A DNA stretch of 64,000 nt, taken from the NCBI GenBank assembly GCA_016928575.1, contig JAFGKK010000088.1:1-64000 (forward strand), read 5' to 3'. Positions 45,948 through 54,649 of the stretch are shown here, one piece after another. Source of the DNA: Anaerolineales bacterium. Lineage in GTDB: Bacteria > Chloroflexota > Anaerolineae > Anaerolineales > RBG-16-64-43. The position numbers and the translations under genes were made by a program. Within the stretch, counting starts at the first letter, position 1. Every line of letters starts with the position of its first letter. The notes below the pieces were generated by a model, which was not told the DNA's origin, did no database searches, and worked only from the letters and a program-made list of their open reading frames with translations.

Positions 45948-47288
45948 ATGCAAACCATCTCGATGATTCCAAACCTGGGATCGAACAATTATTTTCGAAT
46001 AATAATCCGTGGGATTGGAATCGCGTTCGTTATCCAAATTTTCGGCACCGCAATCGGCTACCTAGCTCAAATTATCCTCGCCCAGTGGATCGGAGTAGAA
46101 GAATACGGAAGATTTACGTTCATTGTCGCATGGACCCAGGCGTTCGCTTTCCTCGCCTTGATGGGCTTCGACATTGGGGTGTTGCGATTAATCCCGGAAT
46201 ATCTATTTCGAAAAGAAGTGGGTTATCTGCACGGTCTCCTGAGGTGGAGCAGGGTTTTGGCGCTGTCGGTCGGGATTGTCCTGGCACTTATTTCGACAGC
46301 CGTGCTTATGGTTTTTAGAGGGAGACAACCCGGATGGTCAGTTTTTCTTTGGGGTTCCCCGCTAGTCCCCTTGGTGGCGGTGACAGAGATCCAAACACAA
46401 ATCCTACGCAGCAAATCCAGGATCGCACAGGCATACGGTCCGCCATTGCTGCTTCAACCCCTTCTCTTTCTCACAATAACCACAGTGCTTTTGTTTTTTT
46501 CGAAATCGTTGACCGGAGAATCTGCCGTCTTGTCTTTTTCCGCCTCCTTTCTCTTAATCCTTGTTCTACAAGCCTGGTTCATAAAACGGGAATTCTACTA
46601 CTCGATGCCGAAAGTACCTATCCGATTCTCCATCCCGCAATGGATGCGTGTCACGCTACCTTTATTGATGATTTCTTTCTTTGCTATTGCTCTGCTCAAG
46701 GTGGATACGATCATGGTTGGTTTCTTGTTGGATATAGATGAGGTGGGTATTTACACCGCTGCATACCGGACGGCGACGATCGTCGGATTTTCTCTTATGG
46801 CCACGAATGCCATCGTCGCGCCCCTAATCGGAATGTCTTATGCAAAAAAAGACTTACTCGGAATGCAGGAAATTGTGCGAATGGCCACACTCGGTGGGTT
46901 TAGCTTGGCGATCCTTTTAGGAAGCGGAATTCTCGGGTTGAGCCAGGTGTTGCTGCGGGGGTTTGGAGAGGAATTTCTCCGGGGGCAATCCGTGTTATTA
47001 ATCCTGATTATAGGTCAAATCTTCAATGTCGGCGCGGGGCCCGTAGGACTTCTCCTAATGATCACAGGGCACGAAAGGGAGCCTTTGCGTGTTTTCGGAT
47101 GGAGTGCGGCGATAAATTTCCTCTTGTGTCTTATCCTGATTCCCGTCGGAGGGATTATCGGCGCCGCCTTCGCATCGGCGACATGCACAATGATATGGAA
47201 CATCTGGCTTTGTTTCCGCGTTACGGCCTTAATTAAAATCCAACCTTCGATCTTCTCGGCCTTGAGGTGGTATGCACTCCGAAAATGA
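45948..47288 (+). CDS. Wzx-like polysaccharide flippase (MOP superfamily)
   Basis: 446 aa with about 12-14 membrane helices. It begins with IRGIGIAFVIQIFGTAIGYL and ILAQWIGVEEYGRF, the usual opening of O-antigen/teichoic flippases. It would move undecaprenyl-linked repeat units across the membrane. There is no strong ribosome site before the ATG at 45948. The 3' end overlaps the sulfotransferase gene by 17 bases. Confidence 0.89.
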   Translation: MQTISMIPNLGSNNYFRIIIRGIGIAFVIQIFGTAIGYLAQIILAQWIGVEEYGRFTFIVAWTQAFAFLALMGFDIGVLRLIPEYLFRKEVGYLHGLLRWSRVLALSVGIVLALISTAVLMVFRGRQPGWSVFLWGSPLVPLVAVTEIQTQILRSKSRIAQAYGPPLLLQPLLFLTITTVLLFFSKSLTGESAVLSFSASFLLILVLQAWFIKREFYYSMPKVPIRFSIPQWMRVTLPLLMISFFAIALLKVDTIMVGFLLDIDEVGIYTAAYRTATIVGFSLMATNAIVAPLIGMSYAKKDLLGMQEIVRMATLGGFSLAILLGSGILGLSQVLLRGFGEEFLRGQSVLLILIIGQIFNVGAGPVGLLLMITGHEREPLRVFGWSAAINFLLCLILIPVGGIIGAAFASATCTMIWNIWLCFRVTALIKIQPSIFSALRWYALRK

Positions 47289-48186
47289 GTTCATTACCGG
47301 TCTCCCTAATTTTCTGATTCTTGGGGCGCCACGGTCCGGAACGACTACGATATATCAAAACCTGCGCAGTCATCCGGAAGTGTTTATGGGTCCGGTTAAA
47401 GAACCCATGTTCTTCATCTTGGAGGGAGAAAAAACACCGGAATACCTGGCTTTGGTTCCGAATGCCGTTACCGAATGGGAAACATACCGCAGATTGTTTC
47501 AAGGTGCGGGAAAAGCTAAAGCAATCGGCGAAGCGTCAACCTTTTATCTGTTCAGTAAAAAAGCGGCGAGCCGGATTAGGCACCGTATCCGGAGTGCAAA
47601 GTTTATTGCTATCCTTCGGAATCCTGCAGATCGAGCGTTTTCGCATTTTCTTCATAACCGGATAGAGGGGATAGAACCCCTTGAAAATTTTCTAGAAGCA
47701 TTGGAAGCCGAAGAGGAGCGGAGGAGGAAAGGCTGGTTTATGTATTATTACTACCGGGATGCTGGTTTCTATGGAAAACAGATTAATTGTTATTTTTCAA
47801 AATTCTCAAAGGATCAGTTTCTGTTTCTTTCGTTCGATGAATTAACGAAGTCGCCCGATACCATGTACAAGAAAATATTCCGTTTTTTGGGAGTGTACGA
47901 CAGTATCCGGATTCCCCGCCAAATTCGATATAATCCGTCGGGAACGCCGAAAAATAGGCGATGGTCCGAGTTCCTCCGTAAACCGAACCCGATAAAAAAT
48001 ATTTTCAAGCAATTCCTTCCGCAGACGATCCAATATAATCTCTTTACAAAATTGAATGGATGGAATTTATCCAAGCCGGTTCTGCAGGAGAATATCCGTC
48101 GGGAGCTGATAGAGGAATATCGGAACGATATCGTAGAAACACAGAAACTCACTGGATTGGATCTCTCATCTTGGCTTTTAGAATAA
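47272..48186 (+). CDS. Sulfotransferase domain protein
   Basis: 304 aa. The 5' phosphosulfate loop is LGAPRSGTTTIYQNL and the 3' phosphate-binding motif is AILRNPADRAFSHFLHN, both at the usual spacing for PAPS-dependent sulfotransferases. FLFLSFDELTKSPD fits the family. It is cytoplasmic and probably sulfates a sugar of the repeat unit. PAPS-making genes are not in the window. It overlaps the flippase gene by 17 bases. Confidence 0.9.
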   Translation: MHSENEFITGLPNFLILGAPRSGTTTIYQNLRSHPEVFMGPVKEPMFFILEGEKTPEYLALVPNAVTEWETYRRLFQGAGKAKAIGEASTFYLFSKKAASRIRHRIRSAKFIAILRNPADRAFSHFLHNRIEGIEPLENFLEALEAEEERRRKGWFMYYYYRDAGFYGKQINCYFSKFSKDQFLFLSFDELTKSPDTMYKKIFRFLGVYDSIRIPRQIRYNPSGTPKNRRWSEFLRKPNPIKNIFKQFLPQTIQYNLFTKLNGWNLSKPVLQENIRRELIEEYRNDIVETQKLTGLDLSSWLLE

Positions 48187-48220: not shown

Positions 48221-49921
48221 ATGAATCCGTCACCAGCGTTTTACCCGTTAGCGATTTCGATCGTTGTAGTAGCGGTCTGTTTGGTCTTGATGATCTTGCG
48301 CTTGATCGGCCCTAATCGGATGAACCGATCGACGTATGTGGCGTCGGTAGATTTTCGAAATAAAACTCCTAGGGCATTACTCGGCTTCCTGGTTCTTTAT
48401 GGGATATTGGCGGCGGCCTACTTTATCCTACGATATCATGGGCAATGGGCGGAGACCGATAGTGCGAGTCATACCCAATCCATTGAATATATCAAAGAAC
48501 AAGGTGTTCTGATTCCGGAGCGTGGATATTATTTGCATGGATTCAGCTACCAATTAATTTCCCTGGCGATTATGTTTTTTACGGGATTGTCAGCCCCCAT
48601 CCTCCAGACCCAAATTTATTCCTACGTGGCATCGATCATATTGGTAATTACCACCTTTACTTTCTTCAGGGAAGTGATAAAACAACCCTTTCCGGCGGTC
48701 CTCGCATCCGTCCTCGTTTTTTTTCAACCAGAATTTCTTTTCATAACCATGCGTGGATCCCATGAAAAATTCACCTGGCCGTTAATGATGTTAGCCTTGA
48801 CAGTCTTATATCGCAGCATCGGTCAACCGTTACGAAAAATGACGATATACGTAATTTTCTTCTATGGTATAGTATTTGCGATGATCGCCACGAATATCTT
48901 TTTCGGGTCCGTCTTTCTTGCGGCGATAGTCCTGAGCATGGTCATGGGCGTCGGAATCCTTCGTATAGTACGCTTGCAGCGTCCGCCCTTACCATTTTCG
49001 GATATCCGGCGTCTAATGTTAATCAGCCTGTCGGGAGGGATCCTCATATATATCTTCATGGCATACATATATCCACCGGCGTTATCAAATCTTCGTGAGT
49101 TACGGAGTATTACCGATCAATTAAGCGCCTTGCTACTGAGTTTCGAAATTAAGGCGCAACCCTATGCCTATATCTCCTTCGGATGGATTAGCACGGAAGT
49201 CTATTTTGGATTGACGGTTTTCACCTGGTTGCTTATTCTTGCGTCCATATTGGAATGGATACGGCGCGCATGGAGAATATTTCATGGAGAAGCACGCCCG
49301 GGATTGGTAGAGAATATCGATTGGATGCTTTATACCGGATTTGTCATCCAAATTATCCTATCTATCGCAGTAGATTTCTCCGGAGCGTTGGCTGCGAACA
49401 TGCAACTGCGGTTATTTCCGGGATTTACCGTACTGGCATCGGCATTACTCACCCGGGCAATAACAGAGGGACTTCCGCGCCTGCATCTTTCAAACCATAA
49501 GCGATGGGTGATGCATGGCATTATCGGTTTGATGGTGGCTTGGTTTACCCTCGCATCTCTGTTTAAAGCGACCAATGAGACTCTACTTAGCAACAAATGG
49601 GGTTTCTATACAGAATCAGAATATCGTTCGATCGAATGGGTGGAATCCCGGCTGCGGGGAATGATGATTTGGAGCGGGATCGACGAAAGGTTGTCTAATC
49701 TCTATCGTCTGTATTTCATCTCTGCGTCGCAGACCGGGAATATTCTTTATAACGGCGATTTCAGAACAGTAAGTCGGTATATCATTTATTCAGAAAATGA
49801 CAAGAGGCGAGAGAGGAGGCTGGGCATACCCTCCTTGCCGGTGGACTATTGGGACCAAATATACGATAACGGAGAAGTTGTAATATATCATCAAACCCTG
49901 TTTCCAGAGGAATCTCCCTGA
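48221..49921 (+). CDS. Multi-spanning membrane protein, GT-C or polymerase candidate
   Basis: 566 aa with about 11-12 membrane helices and a soluble C-terminal tail of about 100 residues (IEWVESRLRGMM ... GNILYNGDF). A first extracellular loop contains ETDSASHTQSIEYI, reminiscent of the acidic loop of GT-C enzymes. In a flippase locus without another candidate it is the best choice for a Wzy-like polymerase or a GT-C sugar transferase. I recognise no exact family. Confidence 0.6.
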   Translation: MNPSPAFYPLAISIVVVAVCLVLMILRLIGPNRMNRSTYVASVDFRNKTPRALLGFLVLYGILAAAYFILRYHGQWAETDSASHTQSIEYIKEQGVLIPERGYYLHGFSYQLISLAIMFFTGLSAPILQTQIYSYVASIILVITTFTFFREVIKQPFPAVLASVLVFFQPEFLFITMRGSHEKFTWPLMMLALTVLYRSIGQPLRKMTIYVIFFYGIVFAMIATNIFFGSVFLAAIVLSMVMGVGILRIVRLQRPPLPFSDIRRLMLISLSGGILIYIFMAYIYPPALSNLRELRSITDQLSALLLSFEIKAQPYAYISFGWISTEVYFGLTVFTWLLILASILEWIRRAWRIFHGEARPGLVENIDWMLYTGFVIQIILSIAVDFSGALAANMQLRLFPGFTVLASALLTRAITEGLPRLHLSNHKRWVMHGIIGLMVAWFTLASLFKATNETLLSNKWGFYTESEYRSIEWVESRLRGMMIWSGIDERLSNLYRLYFISASQTGNILYNGDFRTVSRYIIYSENDKRRERRLGIPSLPVDYWDQIYDNGEVVIYHQTLFPEESP

Positions 49922-49924
49922 TCC

Positions 49925-51121
49925 ATGCGAATCGGTATCGTCGCCTACGGCCTTGACCGTCCGCTAACCGGTATTGGTCGATACACGATTGAATTGGTCC
50001 GAGCGCTTCAAAGATCAAAACAGGCGCCAGAAATCGTGCTATTGGCAGCAGGAAAGCCCGGGAACTTGGAAGCGGAAGGATTTACGATAATTCGACTGCC
50101 GGCTTGCAGATATTTACCGGCTTTATTGACGTTGGGAAATTTCTGGATCGCATTTTGGGCGCGGCGATTGAATCTTGACCTGGTCCATGATCCCAACGGA
50201 GTAGCTCCTTTCTTACTGGATGTGGGAAAGGCCTGTTGCGTCGCGACTTTACATGATGTTATTCCCTGGGTTTGCCCTGGCAACAGCAGGTTGTTAGAAG
50301 ACCTCATTTACCGGTATTGGTTGCCCAATCGGATCCGGCGTCTTCACGCAGTCATTACCATAAGCAGTAACTCAAGGAGAGATATCCTTAGATATTTGCC
50401 TGCGCGATCGGAATCCTTGCATATCGTTCCATACGGTCTTCCTGCCTGCTTTCAGAAACGGGCTTCGGAAGCTGAAATCCGTAATCTGAAAAATAAAATC
50501 GGGATTACTTCGCCGTATGTTTTATACGTCGGCGCGTTGGAGTCACGCAAAAACATTCCGAGACTTCTTGAGGCATTTGCGAAAATTCACCATCGAAACC
50601 GGAATCTATCGTTGATATTGGCCGGACCTACCCTGGACCCACAAGGGAAGATTGAAAAAGCGATACGCCGTCTGGGGCTTGCAGATCATGTGATTCGTCT
50701 CGGCCCTGTGAACGATGAGGATCTTCCAGCACTTTACGCGGGGGCGCAGATTTTCACCTTCCCCTCTCTATATGAAGGATTTGGATTGCCGCCCCTGGAA
50801 GCCATGGCAAGCGGGACGCCCGTGGTTTGCTCCAATTCCTCATCGCTTCCGGAAGTGGTCGGAGATGCGGCGATTCTGGTTAATCCTTATGAGATCCAGG
50901 AGTGGGCAAGCGCCATGCAAACTGCTTTATCAAATTCTAGAGTCCGTAATGGACTACGGGAAAGAGGTTTTATCCAAGTTAAAAAATTCACATGGGAACA
51001 CGCTGCCCAAAAGACGCTAGAAGTATACCACGCGGTAATGCAAAGGAAGCCGGCCTTGTCAACTAAAAGCTTACATTCGGATTCGAAAAATCCGGAAATG
51101 AAAAAGGATGATCTTGCTTAA
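49925..51121 (+). CDS. GT4 family glycosyltransferase
   Basis: 398 aa. GT-B with [64 protein letters not shown], and the donor motif [19 protein letters not shown]. It resembles mannosyl/rhamnosyl transferases of capsule clusters. It begins three bases after the preceding stop, so it is co-transcribed. Donor sugar unknown. Confidence 0.93.
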
Positions 51122-51130
51122 GCGCGACCG

Positions 51131-52021
51131 ATGAACCGAATTTTCTCTCGGGACTTTTTTCTTCTATTTCTTGTTCTCTCGGTGTGGATTATAATCTCAG
51201 CATCGGGCGCATGGATATTCTCACAACCCATCTTTTTCATTCGGGCTATGATCGGGATCGTCATAGTCCTTTTTTTTCCGGGCTATGCCATTCAAGCTGC
51301 TCTCTTCCCCAATCCAAAGGATCTCGACGGTTGGACACGCCTGACCTTTTCTTTCGGATTTAGCATCATCATCATTCCCCCGTTGGCGATTATTTGCGAC
51401 GCAGCCAATTTTGGAATAAATATTACGACGATAGTGACAGGTATCCTACTGGTTTTCTTAGTCGGGACGGCAGTTGCGGTGATTGTACGCATCCGCCAAC
51501 CACTCGAATACAGAGAACGTATGATTGGGGAAAGACCAACTTGTAGCTGGTGGATTTCAGGAAAAAGAAACGATCGAATTTTACAGGTTCTGCTTTTGTC
51601 AGCCGGTCTCATCGCGTCGGTTTCGGCATTCTATATGTATGCATATCCACCGGTCGAATCTTCTACGGAATTCTATCTTCAGGGCATTTCGATTCCCGCG
51701 CCGGAAAATCCACGATTGGTGTATTTGAATGAGGAATTCTGGGTCGAATTAGGAATCGTCAATCATGAAGGTCTAGCAAGCGAATATAATGTCACTTTTT
51801 ACGATGACCAAGGACAGATCCTAGGAAAAATCGGACCGATATTTTTGGTGGACGACGAGATGTGGCAAGGAGGAATTTACATCACCATGACGCAGGTCGG
51901 CGATCATCAACGAATTCTTATTTTACTAGAACGTGTCGACTCCCCTTGGCCTTACCGTTCCTTGCGGCTTTGGGTAAACATAGTGGAAAAGAACAATAAT
52001 TTCAACCAACAAGAAACATAG
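51131..52021 (+). CDS. DUF1616-like membrane protein
   Basis: 296 aa. Four N-terminal membrane helices include IVLFFPGYAIQAALFP and DLDGWTRLTFSFGFS, the DUF1616 signature. A fifth helix lies at about 155-175, followed by a roughly 120-residue external beta-rich domain. DUF1616 proteins recur in archaeal and bacterial surface-polymer loci with unknown role. It follows the GT4 gene by nine bases and precedes the CPBP-golvesin gene. Confidence 0.75.
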   Translation: MNRIFSRDFFLLFLVLSVWIIISASGAWIFSQPIFFIRAMIGIVIVLFFPGYAIQAALFPNPKDLDGWTRLTFSFGFSIIIIPPLAIICDAANFGINITTIVTGILLVFLVGTAVAVIVRIRQPLEYRERMIGERPTCSWWISGKRNDRILQVLLLSAGLIASVSAFYMYAYPPVESSTEFYLQGISIPAPENPRLVYLNEEFWVELGIVNHEGLASEYNVTFYDDQGQILGKIGPIFLVDDEMWQGGIYITMTQVGDHQRILILLERVDSPWPYRSLRLWVNIVEKNNNFNQQET

Positions 52022-52170
52022 AAAAGAGCCGCACAAGTAACTTGGAAGATACGGAAATCAGAACAATTGTCCAAAACCCGGTCCAATCCTCACCGACATA
52101 TAGTCGTATAATAATTAGAAATCCATTCCGTCTATCAGATCATCCTTGCGAAATACGGATAATATATACC

Positions 52171-53532
52171 ATGAACGATCGTTCTAATCATCGGATGACT
52201 TGGGTAAACACAGCACGACGTCACCTGATGGGGACCGAAGGACAATATCAAGCCGTTGTATTGTTTTATTTATGTGTCATCACGCTTTCCGAAGTAGTAA
52301 CAACCATGGGGGACGCACATTATGGCATGTTTTTCCATTGTGTTGTCCTCGTACTACTGCTAATGCATAGTGCACTCGTGTACCGGCGAATTCTACGGAG
52401 ATTTCTTGTCCTTCTATCCTTGGCTCCGTTAATCCGTATCCTGAGTCTATCCCTTCCTTTGGCTATACTGGGTTTGCCGGTGATATATTGGTATATGGTG
52501 ATCGGTGGTCTTCTCTTTATTGCCGCGTTCGTTGGCGGGAAGATTACAGAATTCAAGGGGCGTCGCATCGGATGGTCTTTACGGGCATGGCCTGCCCAAT
52601 TAGCGATGGGGATTTGCGGTTTCGGATTAGGATATATTGAATATCTGATATTAAATCCGGGTCCGTTGGCTGAATATGTAACTTGGGAGGATATTATCAC
52701 AGCGGCGTTCATCTTGCTTGTATTTACTGGCTTACTGGAAGAATATATCTTCCGGGGTTTATTGCAATCTGCATCGATGCAGCTCTTGGGGCAAAGAGGA
52801 TTGGTGTATGTTGCTGTTCTCTTTTCAATTCTACATCTGGGGTACCACTCATTTATGGATCTTCTATTTGTTCTATTCGTCGGATTATTGTTCGGGTGGT
52901 GGGTTTGGAGAACGCATTCTTTACTTGGTGCATCCTTGGCACATGGCATTGCGAATATAAGTTTGTATGTTTTATTTCCGCTCTTATTGAACAAAAGCGC
53001 CTTACCGGTTGCCTCGGTACAACCGGAACAAATATCTCTTTCCCCTGTCGCCACCGTTCTAACAAGCGAAACGCCCATGAAGGAATTGGCATACCCTGTA
53101 TCGGAAATACTGGTCGACAATGAGGATCAAGGATTCGTTTTTTCCGGAGATGACTTATGGCTAGATCTAACCGATGGTTTTGGAGGAAGTTTTCGGTGGT
53201 TGTATGCTTCCCAAGCCTCACCAAGCGTTGTGGTATCGTGGATTCCTAGCTTTACGGGTTGTGGAATGTACCGGGTTGACGCCTTCATCCCAAGTGGACG
53301 AGGATTGACGGAATCCGCTCGGTATGTAATCCGCCATCGTGCTGGAAGCCAAGAACTTACGGTCGACCAAGCCAAATACGCCGGGTCGTGGGCGCCGCTT
53401 GGTAATTTTACATTCCTTTCTAAAAGTCCCGTTATCGTCCAATTATCCAACTGGACGGGGGAGGATCAGAAACTTTTCCGATGGGTAAGTTTCGATGCAA
53501 TCCGTTGGAAATTGTTGAAGCCTTGCTCATAA
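52171..53532 (+). CDS. CPBP intramembrane protease fused to golvesin-like domain
   Basis: 453 aa from the ATG at 52171; an in-frame TTG at 52042 would add 43 unlikely residues. About eight membrane helices hold the CPBP (Abi/CAAX-like) motifs GLLEEYIFRGLLQS (EExxR), FSILHLGYH (FxxxH) and LAHGIANI. After about residue 300 comes an external beta domain: VDNEDQGFVFSG, GMYRVDAFIPSG, YVIRHRAG and VDQAKYAGSWAPLGNFTF, the golvesin C-terminal-like pattern seen at cell surfaces. The fusion suggests a membrane protease or transferase acting on surface proteins or polymer. There is no strong ribosome site. Confidence 0.8.
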   Translation: MNDRSNHRMTWVNTARRHLMGTEGQYQAVVLFYLCVITLSEVVTTMGDAHYGMFFHCVVLVLLLMHSALVYRRILRRFLVLLSLAPLIRILSLSLPLAILGLPVIYWYMVIGGLLFIAAFVGGKITEFKGRRIGWSLRAWPAQLAMGICGFGLGYIEYLILNPGPLAEYVTWEDIITAAFILLVFTGLLEEYIFRGLLQSASMQLLGQRGLVYVAVLFSILHLGYHSFMDLLFVLFVGLLFGWWVWRTHSLLGASLAHGIANISLYVLFPLLLNKSALPVASVQPEQISLSPVATVLTSETPMKELAYPVSEILVDNEDQGFVFSGDDLWLDLTDGFGGSFRWLYASQASPSVVVSWIPSFTGCGMYRVDAFIPSGRGLTESARYVIRHRAGSQELTVDQAKYAGSWAPLGNFTFLSKSPVIVQLSNWTGEDQKLFRWVSFDAIRWKLLKPCS

Positions 53533-53546
53533 AAGTAACAACAAAA

Positions 53547-53575
53547 ATGACCGAGTATCTAGGCGCGGGTATAAT
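53547..53575 (+). promoter_or_regulatory. Promoter of the LCP gene
   Basis: ATGACC, 17-bp spacer, perfect TATAAT, ending 57 bases before the LCP start. It implies that the LCP gene can be made apart from the long island transcript. Confidence 0.65.
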
Positions 53576-53632
53576 GCCAATGGCACCGATAAATGGATTG
53601 GTGTATGATAGAAGAAATAAAGGAGATATAAC

Positions 53633-54649
53633 ATGCCCAAGAAACGCAAATGGATAATACTAGGAATTATCATTGCATCTCTCTTTCTATTTGGATGCTG
53701 CGTTACTTTAGGGTATGTATTCTGGAATTCCCCTTTGGGAGAACCATTGGAAATCGTCACGGAACAAAAACCATCTTCAGGAGAAGATATATTGAATCAG
53801 GAGGTGGATGTTTTTCCCTCTCCGCATCCGATTCAAACACAAGCAAATGTTCAAATGGCCACTAATTGCGGGGAGTCCGGTTCGATGAATATTCTGGTAT
53901 TAGGTATCGCGCCATCCGATTTTCCCGGTCCGAATGGACCATTAGACGTTCGAATTATACAAATAGATTTCAGCCGGAAAAAGACGACGGTGTTCTACTT
54001 CCCCAGGGATCTTTGGATTCCAGTCGTGGGATTAGAAAGCCTCGGCTTCGCCCAGACGAGATTGGGGGAGGTATACCTCATCGCGAGAAGCAACGGTGGA
54101 TATTCGGTTTCCGCCGCGACTATTACCGTAGCGCAGAATCTATATTCCAATTTTAATGCGACGAGCCACCACTACATCACCGCCAGTATGTCCACCTTGG
54201 CGGATATTATCGATGTCGTTGGCGGAATAGATATAACGATACCCACATCTTATGACGGCACCCCGTATGGATTTCATTATTTTCCAGCCGGATTGCAGCA
54301 TATGAATGGGCAATTAGCGATGGAATATGCCATCGCACCATCGCCTACGCATCAATGGACGGCATTGGATCGGAAAAACTTGGTGTTGATCGCCCTATTC
54401 CAGAAGATATTCTCACCCGCCGTAGTTCCGAACATTCCCGCCCTGATATCTCAATTCCAACAAATCATATCGACCGATCTCAGCCCTCAACAAATAGTGA
54501 ACCTGATCTGTATTTCCCAAGAGATCCCGCAATCAGAAATAACCGTTACGGGTGTGGGGCCTACAGATGTCGCTATGGGCGCCAGCGGTGTTTTATATCC
54601 TAATTTTGACGCAATCCGTGAAAAAGTAAGACTATTCATCGCTGTATAA
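53633..54649 (+). CDS. LytR-CpsA-Psr (LCP) family protein, divergent
   Basis: 338 aa. AAGGAG precedes the ATG. One N-terminal membrane anchor (residues about 5-30) is followed by an external LCP domain: MNILVLGIAPSD, VFYFPRDLWIPV, VGGIDITIP, QHMNGQLAMEYA and ALDRKNLVLIAL. LCP enzymes attach undecaprenyl-linked glycopolymers to peptidoglycan or proteins. Two usually conserved Arg sites differ: GPLDVR in place of the R-x-D-T motif, and AIAPSP after the Tyr where YVRxR is expected. So activity may be altered. It is the likely terminal anchoring step of the island. Confidence 0.87.
   Translation: MPKKRKWIILGIIIASLFLFGCCVTLGYVFWNSPLGEPLEIVTEQKPSSGEDILNQEVDVFPSPHPIQTQANVQMATNCGESGSMNILVLGIAPSDFPGPNGPLDVRIIQIDFSRKKTTVFYFPRDLWIPVVGLESLGFAQTRLGEVYLIARSNGGYSVSAATITVAQNLYSNFNATSHHYITASMSTLADIIDVVGGIDITIPTSYDGTPYGFHYFPAGLQHMNGQLAMEYAIAPSPTHQWTALDRKNLVLIALFQKIFSPAVVPNIPALISQFQQIISTDLSPQQIVNLICISQEIPQSEITVTGVGPTDVAMGASGVLYPNFDAIREKVRLFIAV

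What the first reader, a model, noticed from the sequence alone, without database searches (positions are those of the whole stretch)
51131..54649. DUF1616, CPBP-golvesin fusion and divergent LCP form a terminal module
Three membrane-anchored proteins with external domains follow the assembly genes. The CPBP protease core keeps its EExxR, FxxxH and His motifs and carries a golvesin-like surface domain, an unusual fusion. They may process a surface protein and attach the polymer to it, an undescribed analogue of sorting or ligation systems.
Basis: inference. Interest (0 to 1): 0.65.

Follow-up and report, generated by a model that had tools for sequence, protein, structure and literature searches.

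The report
DUF1616–CPBP membrane pair, sugar-coat loci

Summary
The three genes and their domains are real: DUF1616, CPBP core plus Golvesin_C, and a divergent LCP. The grouping is only partly right. DUF1616 and this CPBP subfamily form a strong pair. In 396 genomes of the class they co-occur in 21, with 5 and 2 holding one alone (Fisher p 4e-28). They are usually neighbours, and the adjacency recurs in Bacillota, Deinococcota, Methanosarcina and Thermoplasmatales.

The LCP is not part of that pair. Relatives occur in 250 of 396 genomes, and one stands beside the CPBP in only one other genome, G390. Both of these LCPs have lost canonical arginines.

The golvesin fusion was seen only here, but relatives carry SH3 or LysM at the same end, and LysM can sit on DUF1616 instead. 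The CPBP catalytic residues are intact in 52 of 70 cores but decayed in about eight DUF1616-paired ones.

About 16% of the genome showed no C-terminal sorting signal, and exosortase is absent. Best reading: an outward-anchored DUF1616–CPBP complex of glycan loci, probably proteolytic in most lineages. Ligation is not supported.

The parts
51131..52021 (+). DUF1616 protein: four to five TM helices, then an outward CARDB/Ig-like beta-sandwich (residues about 176-290)
   Evidence: PF07760 E 5.5e-39; model pLDDT about 90 in the C-terminal domain; best fold matches CARDB/Ig-like
52042..53532 (+). CPBP-golvesin protein (TTG start as listed; ATG at 52171 more likely)
   Evidence: PF02517 and PF25275; 20 relatives 39-47% identical over the core
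52738..52755 (+). EExxxR motif (E233, E234, R238)
   Evidence: invariant in the 21 aligned cores; position
52834..52836 (+). motif-2 histidine (H265, FxxxH)
   Evidence: invariant in the 21 aligned cores; most often lost residue in far relatives
52942..52956 (+). HxxxN motif (H301, N305)
   Evidence: invariant in the 21 aligned cores
53110..53505 (+). Golvesin_C domain, predicted outside
   Evidence: E 1.7e-16 in the whole protein, 1e-17 alone
53633..54649 (+). divergent LCP protein; PRD kept, VRxR replaced by IAPS
   Evidence: PF03816 E 2.4e-13; alignment; matches TagV and Cps2A structures by sequence
49925..51121 (+). family-4 glycosyltransferase just upstream; its family lies near the CPBP in 17 of 29 related loci
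   Evidence: clustering
48221..49921 (+). large membrane protein without Pfam match, conserved in 10 related clusters besides this one
   Evidence: no Pfam hit above cut-off

Best explanation
The core unit is DUF1616 plus CPBP, a two-protein membrane complex belonging to surface-glycan loci. SHOWN by sequence: the two genes pair up in many lineages; most CPBP copies keep a full glutamic-protease active site; a glycan- or wall-binding type of domain is attached to the outer end of one partner or the other. INFERRED: the complex docks on wall or polymer outside through that domain (golvesin here) and the CPBP cuts, inside the membrane, a protein or peptide needed for export or anchoring of the surface glycan, with DUF1616 presenting the substrate or tying the protease to the glycan machinery. 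It works like the CPBP or exosortase helpers of known sorting systems but without a recognised signal here. The adjacent LCP is a lineage-specific accessory that has probably lost transferase activity.
For: Pairing: 21 of 26 CPBP genomes have DUF1616, 2 of 370 others do; a profile finds three more, so 24 of 26. It recurs in Bacillota, Calidithermus, Methanosarcinaceae and Thermoplasmatales and in a DUF1616-centred search (CPBP within 1.5 kb in 9 of 30 loci). The two proteins' distances correlate (r 0.43, 21 of 10,000 permutations). Active site: E, E, R, H, H, N invariant in 21 aligned cores, intact in 52 of 70. Outer domains: SH3 or LysM on CPBP, LysM on DUF1616, golvesin here. Setting: glycosyltransferases, Wzy_C proteins and heptose-type genes, and a polysaccharide cluster on a Methanosarcina plasmid. 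Link to sorting: exosortase, EpsI-like, CPBP in a row in three archaeal loci, with a PEP-CTERM protein in one.
Against: About eight DUF1616-paired CPBPs have lost at least one catalytic residue, two of them most of the site, so proteolysis cannot be needed everywhere. No substrate was found: no tripartite C-terminal protein in 598 kb of this genome. Exosortase is absent here and occurs in only 3 of 26 CPBP genomes, so the archaeal link may not carry over. The CPBP reaches no NCBIfam sorting-protease cut-off. A confident CPBP-golvesin model was not obtained.
Confidence: 0.47

Rival explanations
1. The CPBP is a non-proteolytic scaffold or chaperone: its fold binds lipid-linked or membrane substrate and, with DUF1616, organises the glycan assembly machinery, as proposed for the CPBP-like proteins SpdC, LnsB and APH-1.
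For: DUF1616 stays paired with CPBPs whose active site has decayed (L205, L208, L209 and others). CPBP-fold proteins without catalytic residues and with envelope roles are published (PMC7387801; PMC5854430).
Against: In most lineages all six residues are kept across large divergence, 30 of 39 DUF1616-paired cores, which a pure scaffold does not need.
Confidence: 0.35
2. The trio is a sorting-and-ligation system: the CPBP cuts a tagged surface protein and the LCP attaches polymer to it.
For: DUF1616-like, LCP and CPBP genes are contiguous also in G390 of the same order. LCP relatives in Gram-positives ligate glycopolymers (general knowledge).
Against: The LCP lacks VRxR here, and PRD in G390, while paralogues in this genome are intact. 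LCP is unlinked elsewhere. No tag was found.
Confidence: 0.08
3. The genes are unrelated neighbours at the end of a polysaccharide cluster, each acting alone.
For: Such clusters mix rapidly, and the LCP fits this description.
Against: DUF1616-CPBP co-occurrence and adjacency across phyla and two domains.
Confidence: 0.05

Closest known systems
Myxosortase MrtX and related CPBP sorting proteases (MrtJ, MrtS, MrtC, MrtP, MrtA)
   Same: CPBP fold with EExxxR, motif-2 His and HxxxN; membrane enzyme tied to cell-surface maturation (PMC11980579)
   Different: Below every NCBIfam cut-off; extra conserved N-terminal TM region with its own invariant residues; DUF1616 partner; outer SH3/LysM/golvesin domains; no cysteine-type C-terminal tag found
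Exosortase/PEP-CTERM loci with EpsI and CAAX-protease-like partners
   Same: Surface-polysaccharide loci; this CPBP subfamily stands third after exosortase and EpsI-like in three archaeal loci; EpsH-CAAX fusions published (PMC1569441)
   Different: No exosortase in the window's genome and few in CPBP-bearing genomes of the class; DUF1616 occupies the upstream slot
SpdC, LnsB and APH-1 (CPBP-like proteins without protease activity)
   Same: CPBP fold, envelope role, act with a partner
   Different: Active site intact here and in most relatives
LCP glycopolymer transferases (TagV, Cps2A)
   Same: Fold family by sequence, matches 3nxh, 6uf3 and 2xxp
   Different: VRxR arginines absent

Membership tests
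CPBP / Rce1-like (PF02517) | Score above curated cut-off | tested here: met
   53.8 bits against 22.4
CPBP / Rce1-like (PF02517) | EExxxR, motif-2 His, HxxxN | tested here: met
   present in the window; 52 of 70 cores intact
CPBP / Rce1-like (PF02517) | Proteolytic activity | not testable with these tools
   needs biochemistry
Myxosortase-type sorting CPBP | NCBIfam cut-offs (MrtX, MrtJ, MrtS, MrtC, MrtP, MrtA) | tested here: not met
   best sorting-protease match 41.1 bits against 75 for MrtJ; relatives likewise below
Myxosortase-type sorting CPBP | Substrate proteins with a tripartite C-terminal tag | tested here: inconclusive
   none in 598 kb, about 16% of the genome; candidates beside distant relatives only
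Exosortase/PEP-CTERM system | Exosortase in the genome | tested here: not met
   no PF09721 match in G000
DUF1616 (PF07760) | Score above curated cut-off | tested here: met
   134.6 bits against 31.6
Golvesin_C (PF25275) | Score above curated cut-off | tested here: met
   60.9 bits against 31.6
Golvesin_C (PF25275) | Carbohydrate binding | not testable with these tools
   only a CBM6/35/36-like annotation of golvesin and xanthan lyase in a paper (PMC9166713)
LCP glycopolymer transferase | PF03816 score above cut-off | tested here: met
   50.9 bits against 24.6
LCP glycopolymer transferase | Conserved active-site arginines (PRD, VRxR, DRxRQ region) | tested here: not met
   PRD and one Arg of the last motif kept, VRxR replaced by IAPS

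The most novel reading that the evidence does not exclude
DUF1616-CPBP is an undescribed surface-maturation system, shared by bacteria and archaea, that stands in for exosortase plus EpsI in surface-glycan loci, with an exchangeable outer wall- or glycan-binding domain that can ride on either partner.
Probability: 0.3. Interest if true: 0.75.

Novelty: new variant of a known kind. Interest (0 to 1): 0.5.

Why it matters
DUF1616 has no known role: only one paper in the library names it, as an N-glycosylated membrane protein of Haloferax (PMC8241124). Tying it to a CPBP protease in surface-glycan loci across two domains gives both families a testable shared function. It also suggests how organisms without exosortase loci may mature their surface.

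Tried and rejected
Single-sequence model of the CPBP-golvesin protein was too poor to search with. Sequence search of CPBP and DUF1616 profiles against solved structures gave nothing at the limits used. Fold matches of DUF1616 cover only the C-terminal sandwich; the TM part was not tested alone. An LPTTG-type protein beside the CPBP of L084 looks like a sortase substrate and was not counted. Golvesin, SH3 and LysM as proof of carbohydrate binding was rejected: it is annotation only.

Full report
Observation. The CPBP protein has an Rce1-like core at residues 218-306 and a Golvesin_C domain at 357-488. Catalytic positions are E233, E234, R238, H265, H301 and N305. Charge distribution places the golvesin domain outside, but the helix limits come from a weak model.

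The CPBP subfamily. A scan of 396 genomes of the class gave 26 with a strong match over the CPBP core (E below 1e-28). An alignment of the window and 20 relatives shows the six catalytic residues invariant, plus residues special to this group in the N-terminal helices (E22, H37, P67, L68, R70, S73, P77 in the alignment numbering). A genome-wide scan found the group in Bacillota, Deinococcota and several archaeal lineages. No NCBIfam model of a named CPBP sorting protease reaches its cut-off.

The real partner. DUF1616 occurs in 23 of the 396 genomes. It is present in 21 of the 26 CPBP genomes and 2 of the other 370 (Fisher p 4e-28; relatedness not corrected, but 10 families hold both). Of the 2, G256 has a weaker CPBP of the group. 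In 16 genomes the two genes lie within about 4 kb. A profile search adds G053, G390 and G258, making 24 of 26. Outside the class, DUF1616 stands directly upstream in Peptococcaceae and other Bacillota, Calidithermus and Methanosarcinaceae, and downstream in a Thermoplasmatales contig. Starting from DUF1616 instead, 9 of the 30 loci fetched in a phylum-wide search have the CPBP within 1.5 kb, the window's own included. The distance matrices of the two proteins correlate (r 0.43, 21 of 10,000 permutations).

The LCP. Relatives of the window LCP are found in 250 of 396 genomes, and among the 29 loci mapped it stands near the CPBP only in G390. There the order is DUF1616-like, LCP, CPBP. In the alignment with TagV the window LCP lacks VRxR and the G390 copy lacks PRD, while two paralogues elsewhere in the window's genome keep them. 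It is therefore treated as an accessory of this order, probably not a ligase.

The fused outer domain. Golvesin was not found on any other CPBP of the group by search with the window domain, but SH3_3 occurs in L042, L045 and L054 and LysM in L055 and L060. LysM sits on DUF1616 in L046 and L103. The DUF1616 outer domain is predicted as a CARDB or Ig-like sandwich.

Setting. Related loci hold the family-4 glycosyltransferase (17 of 29 loci) and the 566-residue membrane protein (10), Wzy_C with TPR, heptose-type sugar genes, and in Methanosarcina vacuolata a plasmid-borne polysaccharide cluster.

Link to sorting systems. In L091, L096 and L104 the CPBP follows an exosortase and an EpsI-like DUF3485 protein, and L104 has a PEP-CTERM protein. 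A filter for signal peptide plus C-terminal helix plus basic tail found candidates beside other relatives too. EpsH-CAAX fusions were reported in 2006 (PMC1569441). In this genome, however, there is no exosortase, and 598 kb gave no such protein. If 20 substrates existed, missing all in 16% of the genome would have a chance of about 3% (my arithmetic), so an abundant class is unlikely.

Protease or not. Of 70 distinct CPBP cores 52 keep all six residues, and a few of the rest are only partial sequences. Among 39 DUF1616-paired cores 30 are intact, and about eight have lost one or more, most often the motif-2 histidine. CPBP-fold proteins without protease activity are known (PMC7387801, PMC5854430). 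I keep proteolysis as the likelier role in intact lineages, including this one, with a scaffold role as the close rival.

Verdict. The sorting idea has a published parallel in CPBP and exosortase systems; the ligation idea is not supported. What is new is the DUF1616-CPBP pair itself and its outer domains that can sit on either partner.

Noticed in passing
window 48221-49921: Large multi-helix protein with no Pfam match above cut-off, conserved in 10 related clusters besides this one with the GT4 gene; possibly a GT-C type glycosyltransferase.
   Followed up: partly
L094 4420-6228; L108 7902-9539: Secreted propeller-type proteins ending in IPEFP, helix and basic tail, near CPBP genes; could be a dedicated substrate pair.
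   Followed up: partly
L107 2312-3238 and 8879-9850: Two similar secreted proteins with C-terminal helix and basic tail, on either side of DUF1616-CPBP in Methanosarcina.
   Followed up: partly
L091, L096, L104: Exosortase, EpsI-like DUF3485 and CPBP in a row in ANME-1 and Methanosarcinales contigs.
   Followed up: yes
L102 3216-5180: A 655-residue protein matching DUF1616 at its start and DUF6541 over most of its length; the DUF1616 TM part may be related to DUF6541.
   Followed up: no
L205, L208, L209: DUF1616-paired CPBPs with a decayed active site.
   Followed up: yes
G000: The window's genome carries 16 CPBP-family matches, one with a TAA stop inside the frame.
   Followed up: no
window 47272-48186: A sulfotransferase-type gene inside the polysaccharide cluster, suggesting a sulfated glycan.
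   Followed up: no
L084 4175-4924: LPTTG-type surface protein directly upstream of a CPBP of this group.
   Followed up: partly
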